This document shows, piece after piece, positions 2,989 through 9,587 of a stretch of 9,587 nt of DNA. How positions within the stretch are numbered: position 1 is the first letter of the stretch; each line of letters begins with the position of its first letter. A model generated the notes under the pieces. The model had not been told where the DNA came from and ran no database searches. It worked only from the letters and a program-made list of their open reading frames with translations. The translations under genes were made by a program, and so were the position numbers. Source of the DNA: Candidatus Poribacteria bacterium (GTDB lineage Bacteria > Poribacteria > DTPJ01 > WJIO01); the NCBI GenBank assembly GCA_014730235.1, contig WJIO01000076.1, forward strand, positions 1-9,587. The letters are read 5' to 3'.

Positions 2989-4122
2989 TTAAATTTGATT
3001 AGAAAAAAAATCTCGTAACATATCTTCCAATTTCATAGATATATCACCAAATGTAGATTTCAAATCTATATACTGTTTCATGGCCATGGGATTTTTATTC
3101 TGTATCCTCTCCGCCTGTATCATAATATTTTTCGGTGTATAGATAGGTGATACATATTCAGAAACACTCACTTTATATCCAGCCACCTCCAGAACCAGAG
3201 TTCTCATAGCATCTGTAAGTAAATCAGCAAGTCTTGCCTTGTAAACACCATGACGGGCTATGGCCTTCAACGGATGCTCTTTTAGCTGATCAATTATCTC
3301 ATGCTGACAGCATGGAACGACCAGTAAAAATGGTGCATCCAGCTTTATAGCTTTTGCTATGGCTTCATCGGTGGCCGTATCGCAGGCGTGCAGGCTGCAA
3401 ACAATATCTACTTTTTCCGGCGGAGTGTAACCCATTATGCTGCTGACGCGGAATTCCATATTATCATAATTCAATTGATTCTTTATTCTCCTGCATTTTT
3501 CCAGGAGTTCAGAATTTGTATCAACGCAGTAAAAATGGCAGCTTCTTCGCATCTTTTCTCTTAAAAAATAGTTCATGGCAAATGAAAGGTAGGATTTTCC
3601 TGTTCCACAATCCAATATCTTTACCTTTTTCTGTTGACTGCTCTTTTTTAATAATGGATATACAAGTTTTATAAAGCTGTCCACCTGGACATACTTACGC
3701 CGCATATTGTCCGTCATGTGACCTTCGGAATTCAATATTTCCATGGCTTCCAGTAATTCTGAAGCCTCATCTATATCAATAAGATTCTTATCTTCTCCCA
3801 AATCTGGTAAGCTGGTCGGCTGGCTGTAGTTAATCTTTAATTTTCCCCGCTTTTCGGAAGGTATATCAATCTGCATGATACCAGACCAGCACTCGCATGT
3901 AAGGTGATGATAACCTGATCTAGCAAGTTTTTCCACAAGTTCAGGGATTTCAGCCGTTAATATCTGTGATTCTTTTCCATTGTGTTTATATATAATATTT
4001 CCATGAGAATCGGGATATATTAATACTTTTGAATCATCTTTGTCTGATGTAATTAGAATATGTTTAAAATCGTCTTTATCACTTATCCTGCTGGATATAG
4101 CCAAACGCAGTGCACCAATCAT
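2989..4122 (-). CDS. SAM-dependent methyltransferase, Methyltransf_32-like
   Basis: The protein has 377 residues. The first 145 or so form a domain I do not recognise. A class I methyltransferase core follows. ILDCGTGKSYLSFAM (about 169-183) is motif I and binds SAM. FYCVDTN (197-203) ends in the acidic residue expected after strand 2. VDIVCSLHACDTATDEAI (238-255) and LLVVPCCQHE (266-275) are the LHACDxATD and VPCCQHE segments typical of the Methyltransf_32 group, which includes METTL25-type proteins and many uncharacterised bacterial ones. Substrate is unknown; RNA or protein are both possible. I prefer the ATG at 4122, with AGGTG six bases upstream. The upstream GTG at 4131 is itself part of that ribosome site. 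Its upstream region is disrupted by a MITE-like element beginning 40 bases before the start, and I see no clear promoter there. Confidence 0.85.
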   Translation of the reverse strand: MIGALRLAISSRISDKDDFKHILITSDKDDSKVLIYPDSHGNIIYKHNGKESQILTAEIPELVEKLARSGYHHLTCECWSGIMQIDIPSEKRGKLKINYSQPTSLPDLGEDKNLIDIDEASELLEAMEILNSEGHMTDNMRRKYVQVDSFIKLVYPLLKKSSQQKKVKILDCGTGKSYLSFAMNYFLREKMRRSCHFYCVDTNSELLEKCRRIKNQLNYDNMEFRVSSIMGYTPPEKVDIVCSLHACDTATDEAIAKAIKLDAPFLLVVPCCQHEIIDQLKEHPLKAIARHGVYKARLADLLTDAMRTLVLEVAGYKVSVSEYVSPIYTPKNIMIQAERIQNKNPMAMKQYIDLKSTFGDISMKLEDMLRDFFSNQI

Positions 4123-4294
4123 AATTATCACCTGTAAGACGGTAAAGGCAGGTTAAATAATTGGCTCTTCCGACTCGAATGTGGAAATGCAAAACACATT
4201 GTCTAATTAAGAAAGAATCTCATCTCCTTGTCATTCCCGCTTTCGCAGGAATGACAAGTTGAGAGAATTTTCAATCATTACCACACTCTATCCG

Positions 4295-4437
4295 CTATAC
4301 TTTCGCAATTTTTAAAAGATATAGTATTTATGCGCTTGTAGTAGTAGGGACACGGTATACCGTGTCCCTACTACAAACCGAAAATCCTTATGAAATCTAT
4401 ATTTACCGTTTTGATATATAAAAAGTGCGAAATATAG
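4295..4437 (+). mobile_element. MITE-like element, family B, nested in family A copy 1
   Basis: This 143-bp insertion has terminal inverted repeats of about 19 bp. The left end CTATACTTTCGCA and the reverse complement of the right end, CTATATTTCGCAC, align with one gap, and both continue into TTTTTA. It is flanked by the 6-bp direct repeat TATCCG (4289-4294 and 4438-4443). Removing it with one TATCCG rebuilds the right terminal repeat of the outer element. It is non-coding and contains a perfect palindrome at 4341-4374. It must be younger than the outer element. Confidence 0.75.
4341..4374. repeat. Perfect 34-bp palindrome of the GTAGGGACACGG type
   Basis: The arms 4341-4357 and 4358-4374 are perfect 17-bp reverse complements with no loop. 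The outer sequence is GTAGTAGGGACACGGTA and the inner centre is GGTATACC. Its core (4344-4371) is bounded on each side by TA, which could be a TA target duplication, although a palindrome makes that ambiguous. It may be a third inserted element or an intrinsic part of family B. Confidence 0.8.
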
Positions 4438-4509
4438 TATCCGGAAGAGCCAAATAATTTAACCTGCCTTTAAAAATAATTTGCTTAATAAAGTCAATTT
4501 GACCACATA

Positions 4510-6285
4510 TTAAAGCAACCCGGGCCCTTCGTATGTATCAGAAGACTTAACTTTGTGCTCAAGGCTGTCTTCCATTGCATAGCTTCCGCATATTTTAGCA
4601 GTGAAACCAAGTTCATGGGCGATAGCCGCTTTGGCAAACATTATTTCATTGGCAGTAGCGGCATCAGGTGCATAGCTTACGGTAATATGGTTGGATTTGT
4701 GCTTTGCCATCATCTGGTCCCGGCTTACGCCATAGGTTACAGCGTGCATAAGAGGCCATTCTTCGGTGGTTGCAGCCCAGATTTTATCGCTTTCCTCTGG
4801 TGGAAGTTCCAGGGCAGCGCCTCTGCCGATATCAATGCACATCTCTCCCTGGTCAATGTAGACTCTACTCCAGATTATTTCACCGGATTTGGCCGTTCCT
4901 TTAGTGCATATACCGTTCTCAGGGAAGTAGTCGTAAGGTTGTCTTTCGGCTGTCATATCTGCCCATCCGTTTTCCATATGACCGGCTGGTGTATTACCTG
5001 AAAGTTCAAAGGCCCACAGGAAGGAATCAATATCCAGATCTTTGCCTTTATAGCTTCCCTTATTCTTATATACATGTCCCCATCTCAGGTCGTGCTGAGT
5101 AGTTTCCCACCATGTGGGTTCAAGACCAGTACCCTTATAAATAACTTTGCTTAATGTCTGGTCAACGGCGCAGCCCATATCAGCTTCATTGGCGCACATT
5201 ATAGGTTCATTGGGCATAACCATCTTTCCCCGATATTCCACCGGTGGTCTGACGGTGCTGTTTAGCATGGCTTCGACTAAATCTGATGCAGCGCATAGCT
5301 TCGCCAGACCGAGTTGATAAGCAATTCCAACACCTATAAGGCCTTCTTCTGCAATATGTCTTACCATGGCCCCATACATCTGACCCGACTGAATTACGGC
5401 ATCCCTGGTAATCTCTGTCAGATTGTCAGAGCCTACTTCCAGGTCAAATCCCTGTTCTACAAGATACTTAATATATCCCTCTGCCTCTCTGGTGGGTATA
5501 TCCTGCATTCTTGCGTATAATTCAGACTGATTAAGTCTTCTTAACTGTATACCTGTACCGACCATATCTTTTTCATCAAAAGCGGCGTTCAGCATACCCA
5601 TGCAAAGGGGATCATATATTCCCAGGATTCTTGGTTTTGCCAGGAAATTTTCAGCGGCTTTTTTAGCAAATTCAAAGGCATTGTTGTATTCCCTGTATTC
5701 AGCAGGATTAAATACTTTTACATGGGACAGGTCATATTCAATAGTGCCGGTTTCCAGCCACTGAATCAGACGCTTTTTGCTTGCATCATCCTTGAATTCT
5801 TCATGACTCCAGACAAAGGAATGGCCTTTCTGGTGATCACCGTATTTATATTTTGTTAAACATGCTTCCAAACCCGCAGCGCCAACCAGACCGGGCCATG
5901 TACCATCAAAGTTGGATGCAATAAGAACAGGGCCTTCCCACTCCCAGAGAGGATAAGCAATGTGATTGCTGTATTGCCAGACGGCTTCAGCCACAATTAA
6001 AGGAGCATCTTTTGGCAAACTGGCCAGAACTGCTGCTCCCTGAGCCTGTGTCTCGATAAACCCATGACCCATCTCAGGATCTACCTCAGGATGTGCACGT
6101 ATTATATTATAACCCAGATCATCAAAAGCCTTTTTTATTTGTCTTTCGCACTCCATCTGTGCTTCCTGGCATGCAGCATTGGCAAAACGACGCCTGTCAC
6201 CATTGGCTATAAGAAAAAGGTCTTTATCACCTTTACTCATAATTTCTGTTTCCGGCAGTATATCCGAATTCCATTTTATACTCAT
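4510..6285 (-). CDS. L-fucose isomerase-family protein (ketol isomerase)
   Basis: The protein has 591 residues, the same length as E. coli FucI, and is collinear with it. The three Mn-binding residues can be matched by local motifs. Glu338 lies in VEAMLNST (FucI AEAILNSS). Asp369 lies in NEADMG (FucI TENDSLNG). His533 lies in SNHITVSY (FucI ANHGVLTI). A segment near 221-234 with DPLCMGMLNA corresponds to FucI GGVSMGIAGS. FucI interconverts L-fucose/L-fuculose and D-arabinose/D-ribulose in the cytoplasm. The N-terminal FucI segment GIRPVIDGRR is replaced by LFLIANGDRRR, so substrate preference may differ. The ATG at 6285 has GGAGGT at 6296-6301 with a 10-base gap; the GTG at 6294 is too close to that site. 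Divergent from the PfkB kinase, with a promoter at 6403-6431. The DNA at its 3' side is interrupted by nested elements. Confidence 0.88.
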   Translation of the reverse strand: MSIKWNSDILPETEIMSKGDKDLFLIANGDRRRFANAACQEAQMECERQIKKAFDDLGYNIIRAHPEVDPEMGHGFIETQAQGAAVLASLPKDAPLIVAEAVWQYSNHIAYPLWEWEGPVLIASNFDGTWPGLVGAAGLEACLTKYKYGDHQKGHSFVWSHEEFKDDASKKRLIQWLETGTIEYDLSHVKVFNPAEYREYNNAFEFAKKAAENFLAKPRILGIYDPLCMGMLNAAFDEKDMVGTGIQLRRLNQSELYARMQDIPTREAEGYIKYLVEQGFDLEVGSDNLTEITRDAVIQSGQMYGAMVRHIAEEGLIGVGIAYQLGLAKLCAASDLVEAMLNSTVRPPVEYRGKMVMPNEPIMCANEADMGCAVDQTLSKVIYKGTGLEPTWWETTQHDLRWGHVYKNKGSYKGKDLDIDSFLWAFELSGNTPAGHMENGWADMTAERQPYDYFPENGICTKGTAKSGEIIWSRVYIDQGEMCIDIGRGAALELPPEESDKIWAATTEEWPLMHAVTYGVSRDQMMAKHKSNHITVSYAPDAATANEIMFAKAAIAHELGFTAKICGSYAMEDSLEHKVKSSDTYEGPGLL

Positions 6286-6310
6286 TTTTAACACTACCTC
6301 CGTTATTTTT

Positions 6311-8992: not shown

Positions 8993-9008
8993 ATAAAACC
9001 TTTTTCAA

Positions 9009-9066
9009 CCAAGCATAAATTTACATCCCTGTGTTATTGCGAAGAACAGTGTAACAAATAAAGTTT
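9009..9066 (+). repeat. 58-bp direct repeat, copy 1
   Basis: The repeat starts CCAAGCATAAATTTACATCC and ends AACAAATAAAGTTT. It matches 9349-9407 with one single-base length difference and two substitutions. The middle, TGTTATTGCGAAGAACAG, has short TGTTA/TAACA arms and recalls dispersed intergenic repeats of the 'ATTGCGA' type. The right end abuts the family A element at 9067 exactly. Confidence 0.8.
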
Positions 9067-9263
9067 GGCTCTTCCGAATTGAGTGTGGAAATAATTTAAG
9101 GTTCTTCTGGGTTTAGTGGGGTTATAGTTGAAAATCCTCTCAGCTTGTCATTTCTGCGGAAGCAGGAATCCAGTAGATCCACATAAAGACTAGATTCCTG
9201 CTTCCGCAGGAATGACAGCATAAAGAATTTTCTTATCTTTAACACACTTAATTCGCAAGATCC
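9067..9263 (-). mobile_element. MITE-like element, family A, copy 2 (inverted orientation)
   Basis: The left end GGCTCTTCCGAATTGAGTGT and the reverse complement of the right end, GGATCTTGCGAATTAAGTGT, form terminal inverted repeats of about 26 bp. The element is 197 bp and non-coding. Its centre is a hairpin with 25-base arms (9146-9170 and 9193-9217, one mismatch) of the TGTCATT...AATGACA type. Aligning GAAAAT-CTCAGCTTGTCATT shows that it lies in the opposite orientation to copies 1 and 3, with about 30 extra bases near 9099-9130. No clear target duplication is visible. Confidence 0.65.
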
Positions 9264-9348
9264 AACAAGGCCAGTAAGTTTATTATCCCTGGATAACAAA
9301 CTACTCTTCATAATATAATTTATTTGTGTTATAATAATCCAGATTTAT
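9264..9348. other. Gene-free spacer between repeats
   Basis: AT-rich sequence with no credible reading frame, RNA gene or convincing promoter. It links the right end of family A copy 2 to the second copy of the 58-bp repeat. Confidence 0.6.
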
Positions 9349-9407
9349 CCAAGCATAAATTTTACATCCCTGTGTTATTGCGAAGAACGGAGTAACAAAT
9401 AAAGTTT
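9349..9407 (+). repeat. 58-bp direct repeat, copy 2
   Basis: This is the second copy of the repeat at 9009-9066, one base longer because of an extra T in the ATTTTAC tract. It lies 340 bases from the first copy. About 20 bases of AT-rich sequence separate it from the next family A element. Confidence 0.8.
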
Positions 9408-9428: not shown

Positions 9429-9587
9429 GGCTCATCCAGTTTGAATGTGGAAGTGTAAAAGACATTGTCCAATTAAGAAAAAATATCCTCCATTTGTCAT
9501 TCCTGCTTCAAGCTTTTTGAAAAAGCTTGAAGCAGGAATGACAAGCTGAGAAAATTTTCAAATTATTACCATACTCAAACCGGAAGA
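9429..9587 (+). mobile_element. MITE-like element, family A, copy 3 (cut by window end)
   Basis: The element begins GGCTCATCCAGTTTGAATGT and ends CCATACTCAAACCGGAAGA at the window edge, about two bases short of its expected end. Copies 1 and 3 align along their whole length, including GACATTGTCCAATTAAGAAA and the stretch before the right end. It contains a perfect hairpin with 25-bp arms (9494-9518 and 9520-9544) around one G. It is in the same orientation as copy 1 and is non-coding. Confidence 0.7.

What the first reader, a model, noticed from the sequence alone, without database searches (positions are those of the whole stretch)
4143..4472. Nested insertions that can be peeled back in order
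Three layers can be undone by exact rules. Removing 4295-4437 with one TATCCG rebuilds a proper terminal repeat for the outer element. Removing 4163-4451 with one AAATAATT then restores a 16-bp perfect palindrome. Two independent reconstructions both giving perfect or near-perfect symmetry is strong evidence for two non-autonomous element families with 8-bp and 6-bp duplications. A perfect 34-bp palindrome inside the inner element may be a third layer.
Basis: seen in the sequence. Interest (0 to 1): 0.72.

Follow-up and report, generated by a model that had tools for sequence, protein, structure and literature searches.

The report
Transposon nested inside another transposon
In an uncultured bacterium of the candidate phylum Poribacteria, a tiny gene-less transposon jumped into a gene-end hairpin and a second one later jumped into the first; both are of known kinds, but the genome holds over a thousand ends of the first family and its copies' lengths look fixed in steps of the DNA helix turn.

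Summary
Confirmed. 4163-4451 is a non-autonomous element with 22-bp terminal repeats, flanked by AAATAATT/AAATAATT. It is interrupted by a second one, 4295-4437, flanked by TATCCG/TATCCG. Undoing both gives a 140-bp outer element (85% identical end to end to intact 141-bp copies) and an empty site with a 16-bp perfect stem. Other copies share these boundaries. The outer family has about 1,105 ends in the 5.5-Mb genome; its 8-bp duplications are decisive (identity 0.78 at k=8, 0.51 shuffled, z 15.6). The inner family has about 57 ends and 6-7 bp duplications (z 4.3 at 6).

Ends and duplication length link the outer family to ISL3 transposases. The inner ends occur on a full-length archaeal element with an IS701-type transposase. 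The 34-bp palindrome is not a third insertion: nearly all inner copies carry it, and its arms change together (27 symmetric double changes, 6.2 expected).

Beyond the finding: outer-family lengths cluster at 109, 120, 141, 163, 184, 205 bp despite unrelated insides, suggesting helical phasing. A third family (9-bp duplications) usually carries an outer copy and often sits 16 nt upstream of promoter -35 boxes. Nested MITEs are a known kind; I found no description of these families.

The parts
4143..4158 (.). left arm of the hairpin at the original empty site (downstream of the minus-strand gene 4510-6294)
   Evidence: pairs perfectly, 16 bp, with 4160-4162 joined to 4460-4472 once the outer element and one AAATAATT are removed
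4460..4472 (.). right arm (13 of 16 bases) of the same hairpin
4155..4162 (.). 8-bp target duplication AAATAATT, left copy
   Evidence: exact repeat; family-wide 8-bp duplication
4452..4459 (.). 8-bp target duplication AAATAATT, right copy
4163..4451 (.). outer element, ISL3-type MITE (140 bp without the inner element and one TATCCG)
   Evidence: boundaries shared with 146 copies collected; 85% identity to 141-bp copies
4163..4184 (+). outer left terminal repeat GGCTCTTCCGACTCGAATGTGG
   Evidence: family TIR GGYTCTTCCGRNYNNAGTGTGG, 547+558 hits in the genome, reversed-pattern control 2+2
4281..4294 (-). outer right terminal repeat, first 14 bp (CCACACTCTATCCG), cut by the inner insertion
4444..4451 (-). 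outer right terminal repeat, last 8 bp (GAAGAGCC)
4227..4258 (.). central hairpin of the outer element (CTTGTCATTCCCGC...GCAGGAATGACAAG)
   Evidence: inverted repeat, 93% complementary; present in nearly all copies of 100 bp or more
4289..4294 (.). 6-bp target duplication TATCCG, left copy
4438..4443 (.). 6-bp target duplication TATCCG, right copy
4295..4437 (.). inner element, 143-bp MITE with IS701-like ends
   Evidence: boundaries shared with aligned copies
4295..4314 (+). inner left terminal repeat CTATACTTTCGCAATTTTTA
   Evidence: 57 hits in the genome, control 1+1
4419..4437 (-). inner right terminal repeat, with one base missing against the family (GAAATATAG for GAAAGTATAG)
4341..4374 (.). 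perfect 34-bp palindrome at the centre of the inner element
   Evidence: arms covary between copies
2989..4131 (-). neighbouring gene, Methyltransf_32 protein (not part of the elements)
4510..6294 (-). neighbouring gene, Fucose_iso_C protein, whose downstream hairpin was hit

Best explanation
Two successive cut-and-paste insertions of unrelated MITEs. (1) A 140-bp ISL3-type MITE was inserted, probably by an ISL3-family transposase acting in trans, into AAATAATT near the centre of a 16-bp hairpin downstream of the gene at 4510-6294, duplicating 8 bp. (2) Later a 143-bp MITE with the ends of an IS701-like element was inserted into the right terminal repeat of the first, duplicating TATCCG. The second insertion split the first element's right end and so probably immobilised it. 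Shown: boundaries, duplications, family copies, shared ends, restored structures. Inferred: which transposase acted, that insertion was in trans, immobilisation, and any effect on transcript ends.
For: Exact duplications at both levels and restoration of a 22-bp terminal repeat and a 16-bp stem. Outer family: 1,105 TIR ends; 8-bp duplication identity 0.776 against 0.510 shuffled, z 15.6, 26 exact of 67. Inner family: 57 ends; duplication identity 0.604 at k=6, z 4.3, 6 exact of 16; exact 7-bp duplications in other genomes. Reconstructed outer element 85% identical over its length to intact 141-bp copies. ISL3 link: annotated ISL3 elements have ends GGTTCATCCGG or GGTTCTTCGCG; two have exact 8-bp duplications and one 7 of 8. 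Broken ISL3 genes with GGTTCATCCGG or GGATTCATCCGGG ends lie in this genome. In another poribacterial genome a broken ISL3 gene lies between GATTCATCCGACTTATGTGGGAATGAATCTTGCTA ends, which match MITEs of that phylum. IS701 link: CTATACTTTTGCACTTTTTA ends flank a 1,492-bp archaeal element with a transposase scoring 268 bits to NF049999, cut-off 170; order-mate copies keep the ends and the start of a similar reading frame (MNAFFPAILL).
Against: No intact ISL3 or IS701_3 transposase gene with matching ends is assembled in this genome; the draft of 451 contigs may have lost repeated elements. ISL3 ends in this genome share only about 10 of the first 11 bases with the MITE ends. The full-length archaeal element shows no target duplication. 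IS701 elements are recalled as making 4-bp duplications, not 6-7 (own knowledge, not tested).
Confidence: 0.93

Rival explanations
1. The elements are real, but the outer family is moved by a transposase family other than ISL3 that also makes 8-bp duplications.
For: Several poribacterial genomes with related ends have no ISL3 match.
Against: ISL3 elements pair this end sequence (GGTTCWTC) with 8-bp duplications; broken ISL3 genes with such ends occur in this phylum.
Confidence: 0.17
2. The inner family is moved by another DDE family (IS4 or IS1634-like), and the archaeal IS701-type element shares its ends only by convergence.
For: Duplications of 6-7 bp are unlike the 4 bp that I recall for IS701.
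Against: 20 shared terminal bases; order-mate copies keep the end plus the start of a similar reading frame.
Confidence: 0.2
3. The 34-bp palindrome is itself a third inserted element.
For: It is a perfect, self-contained palindrome, and a like hairpin (TTTAGGGACACGGCACGCCGTGTCCCT) occurs alone in another poribacterial genome.
Against: 24 inner copies have a palindrome at the same place, so it predates their spread; no duplication flanks it. Copies without it are shortened.
Confidence: 0.06
4. The nesting arose by recombination or replication slippage between repeats, not by transposition.
For: Hybrid and broken copies exist (L067; L066).
Against: Precise boundaries with family-specific duplication lengths at both levels.
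Confidence: 0.02

Closest known systems
ISL3-family MITEs and ISL3 insertion sequences
   Same: GGTTCWTC ends, 8-bp duplications, AT-rich targets.
   Different: No transposase of its own; the end sequence differs from the assembled ISL3 copies after about 10 bases; very high copy number.
IS701-type element (NF049999) in Methanosarcinales/Methanophagales
   Same: First 20 bases of the ends.
   Different: Inner element is 143 bp with no gene and 6-7 bp duplications.
Paramecium internal eliminated sequences (PMC3464196)
   Same: Lengths of short transposon-derived elements follow the helical repeat.
   Different: Here the elements are bacterial MITEs, the steps are mostly 21 bp, and the phase of the shortest copies differs.
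Template-switch maintenance of hairpins (PMC8794818)
   Same: Both arms of a stem change together.
   Different: Here it is seen between copies of a MITE palindrome, not an RNA gene; the mechanism is untested.

Membership tests
MITE (miniature inverted-repeat transposable element) | short, no transposase gene, terminal inverted repeats, target duplication, many copies | tested here: met
   both families
ISL3-derived | 8-bp target duplication | tested here: met
   z 15.6 at k=8 only
ISL3-derived | terminal repeats like those of ISL3 elements | tested here: met
   GGYTCTTCCG against GGTTCATCCGG and GGTTCTTCGCG in annotated ISL3 elements
ISL3-derived | full-length ISL3 element with the same ends in the same genome | tested here: not met
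   only broken or contig-end ISL3 genes, ends close but not identical
IS701-derived (inner) | same ends as a full-length element with an IS701-family transposase | tested here: met
   L137 3675-5166, NF049999 268 bits; in another organism
IS701-derived (inner) | 4-bp target duplication (recalled, not looked up) | tested here: not met
   6-7 bp; so the link is by ends, not full membership
helically phased transposon lengths | lengths cluster at multiples of about 10.5 bp across independent architectures | tested here: inconclusive
   R 0.61-0.64, p below 0.001 against jittered lengths; 13 hand-listed events p 8e-4; adding short hairpin-less copies weakens it to p 0.06

The most novel reading that the evidence does not exclude
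Copies of the outer MITE family are confined to lengths about 109, 120, 141, 163, 184 and 205 bp whatever their internal sequence, because transposition of so short an element needs its two ends on the same face of the DNA helix: a natural helical-twist experiment on an ISL3-type transposon. A companion family with 9-bp duplications is aimed at a fixed distance upstream of promoter -35 boxes.
Probability: 0.5. Interest if true: 0.68.

Novelty: new member of a known kind. Interest (0 to 1): 0.5.

Why it matters
Insertion history can be read base by base here, and the genome behind it is unusual: over a thousand terminal repeats of one MITE family, with no intact transposase assembled. The copy set is large enough to read physical limits on transposition (end-to-end phasing, duplication length, target choice) from sequence alone, in a phylum without a cultured model (own knowledge). 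If the length steps hold, they would be a natural bacterial counterpart of helical-twist experiments made with short transposons.

Tried and rejected
An exact 31-base inner pattern in named genomes found nothing; the 20-base end found 29 stretches. The outer element is not in phages or viral contigs. Insertion into hairpins as a rule was rejected: of 86 outer insertions only the window's restores a stem of 10 bp or more. C80 of this genome has an IS701-like gene, but no matching ends or duplications. ISL3 in the order-mate is only a fragment. A fuzzy regular-expression search for all inner palindromes timed out; 24 were typed from earlier outputs, with extra GTA triplets removed by hand. Paper searches found nothing on Poribacteria MITEs or nested bacterial MITEs.

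Full report
The window is a whole contig of a 5.53-Mb, 451-contig genome whose order-mate (G001) has the same contig coordinates and sequence as named Candidatus Poribacteria SpSt-970 records.

Observation. The coordinates in the finding are exact. The outer unit 4163-4451 is flanked by AAATAATT and the inner unit 4295-4437 by TATCCG. Undoing the inner insertion yields a 140-bp element with 22-bp ends. Undoing the outer one yields a 33-nt empty site with 16-bp perfect arms, folding at -19.9 kcal/mol, z -7.2. The hairpin lies downstream of the minus-strand gene 4510-6294 (Fucose_iso_C), so it could be a transcription terminator; its U run is short and this was not tested.

Outer family. A search of the genome with the window stretch found many copies of each half, breaking exactly at the inner insertion point. 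The terminal repeat GGYTCTTCCGRNYNNAGTGTGG occurs 547 and 558 times on the two strands at up to 3 mismatches; the reversed pattern gives 2 and 2. In 67 paired copies from 879 kb, flanking identity is 0.776 at 8 bp against 0.510 for shuffled flanks (z 15.6); lengths of 6, 9 and 10 show nothing. The target consensus is AT-rich, AAATATTT-like, which fits AAATAATT. The reconstructed 140-bp element is 85% identical over its length to 141-bp copies.

Which transposase. Annotated ISL3 elements on plasmids have ends GGTTCATCCGG or GGTTCTTCGCG; two have exact 8-bp duplications and the third 7 of 8. This genome has ISL3 gene pieces at contig ends, with ends GGTTCATCCGG and GGATTCATCCGGG. In poribacterial genome G063 a broken ISL3 gene lies between GATTCATCCGACTTATGTGGGAATGAATCTTGCTA ends; MITEs of 270-948 bp in other genomes of the phylum have GGYTCTTCAGRGTTAAGTGTGGGAATGAA-type ends, several with exact 8-bp duplications. 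No intact ISL3 element with exactly the MITE's ends was found.

Inner family. CTATACTTTCGCACTTTTTA occurs 57 times (control 1+1). Complete copies are mostly 135-141 bp and share both boundaries. Flank identity peaks at 6 bp (0.604 against 0.412, z 4.3, 6 exact of 16) and at 7 bp (z 3.3). Copies in Desulfobacterales and a Bacillota genome have exact 7-bp duplications. The same ends flank a 1,492-bp element in a Methanosarcinales genome (L137 3675-5166) whose transposase scores 268 bits to NF049999, IS701 family. Order-mate copies keep the end and the start of a similar frame. I recall 4-bp duplications for IS701, so I link the inner family by its ends and do not file it as a regular member.

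The palindrome. All 24 inner copies examined have a palindrome at the same place, so it is not a third layer. Its arms differ between copies more than the flanks do (0.142 against 0.08), yet change together: 27 symmetric double changes of 12 types against 6.2 +- 1.9 expected with arms shuffled, maximum 14 of 5000. Some of these are shared by descent. Template switching between arms (PMC8794818) or selection on a hairpin would both give this.

Length steps. Among 146 outer copies, lengths of 100 bp or more fall at 108-110, 118-123, 138-142, 161-166, 182-186, 203-207 and so on, with few between, although the steps come from different pieces: two unrelated long arms, a loop palindrome, a longer loop, a doubled hairpin, a piece of the inner MITE, and separate deletions of 9-12 bp. 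Counting one per architecture, the 10.5-bp resultant is 0.61-0.64 with p below 0.001 against jittered lengths. Thirteen hand-listed size changes give R 0.74, p 8e-4; adding five short copies without a hairpin lowers this to p 0.06. Architectures share modules, so these p-values are optimistic. Precedents are IS50 and Paramecium IESs (PMC3464196).

A real further layer. A third family with ends CCAAGCATAAATTTTA and 9-bp duplications (identity 0.71 at k=9 against 0.40 or less; 9 exact of 19) carries an outer copy at the same inner site in about 27 of 29 copies, so a nested composite was itself amplified. Its right ends stand 16 nt before TTGA in 18 of 67 cases (background 0.0066, p 4e-24), with TATAAT-like boxes at the expected spacing in 24 of 67 against 1-4 at control places. 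The window holds left halves of this family near 9004-9066 and 9344-9407.

Verdict. Nested MITEs are a known kind; the length steps and the promoter-side insertions are the parts worth pursuing.

Noticed in passing
whole genome sample; outer family, e.g. L200, L179, L182, L258, L265: Lengths of outer-family copies are stepped (109, 120, 141, 163, 184, 205 bp) although made of unrelated internal pieces; compatible with helical phasing of the two ends.
   Followed up: partly
window 9004-9066 and 9344-9407; 67 right ends in the genome sample: A third MITE family (ends CCAAGCATAAA, 9-bp duplications) often lies with its end 16 nt upstream of a TTGA(C) -35 box with a TATAAT box at the usual spacing.
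   Followed up: partly
e.g. L174:787, L184:2884, L301:117: Nearly all copies of the third family carry an outer MITE at the same internal AAAGTTTT site, so a nested composite was amplified as a unit.
   Followed up: partly
window 4341-4374 and 23 other inner copies: The palindrome arms of the inner family change symmetrically between copies.
   Followed up: partly
window 9067-9263 and 9429-9450: Further outer-family ends: a 164-bp copy at 9100-9263 lies 33 bp inside another outer left end at 9067, a second nested pair with a rearranged right side.
   Followed up: no
L067, L066: Hybrids of the two families: an inner left half joined to an outer right half, and an outer copy with intact 8-bp duplication holding a piece of the inner element.
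   Followed up: no
L138-L165 (Bacillota UR.bin48, Nitrospirae, Desulfobacterales, Poribacteria): The inner terminal repeat occurs in MITEs of 104-171 bp in distant phyla, some with a similar central TGTAGGGGC hairpin.
   Followed up: no
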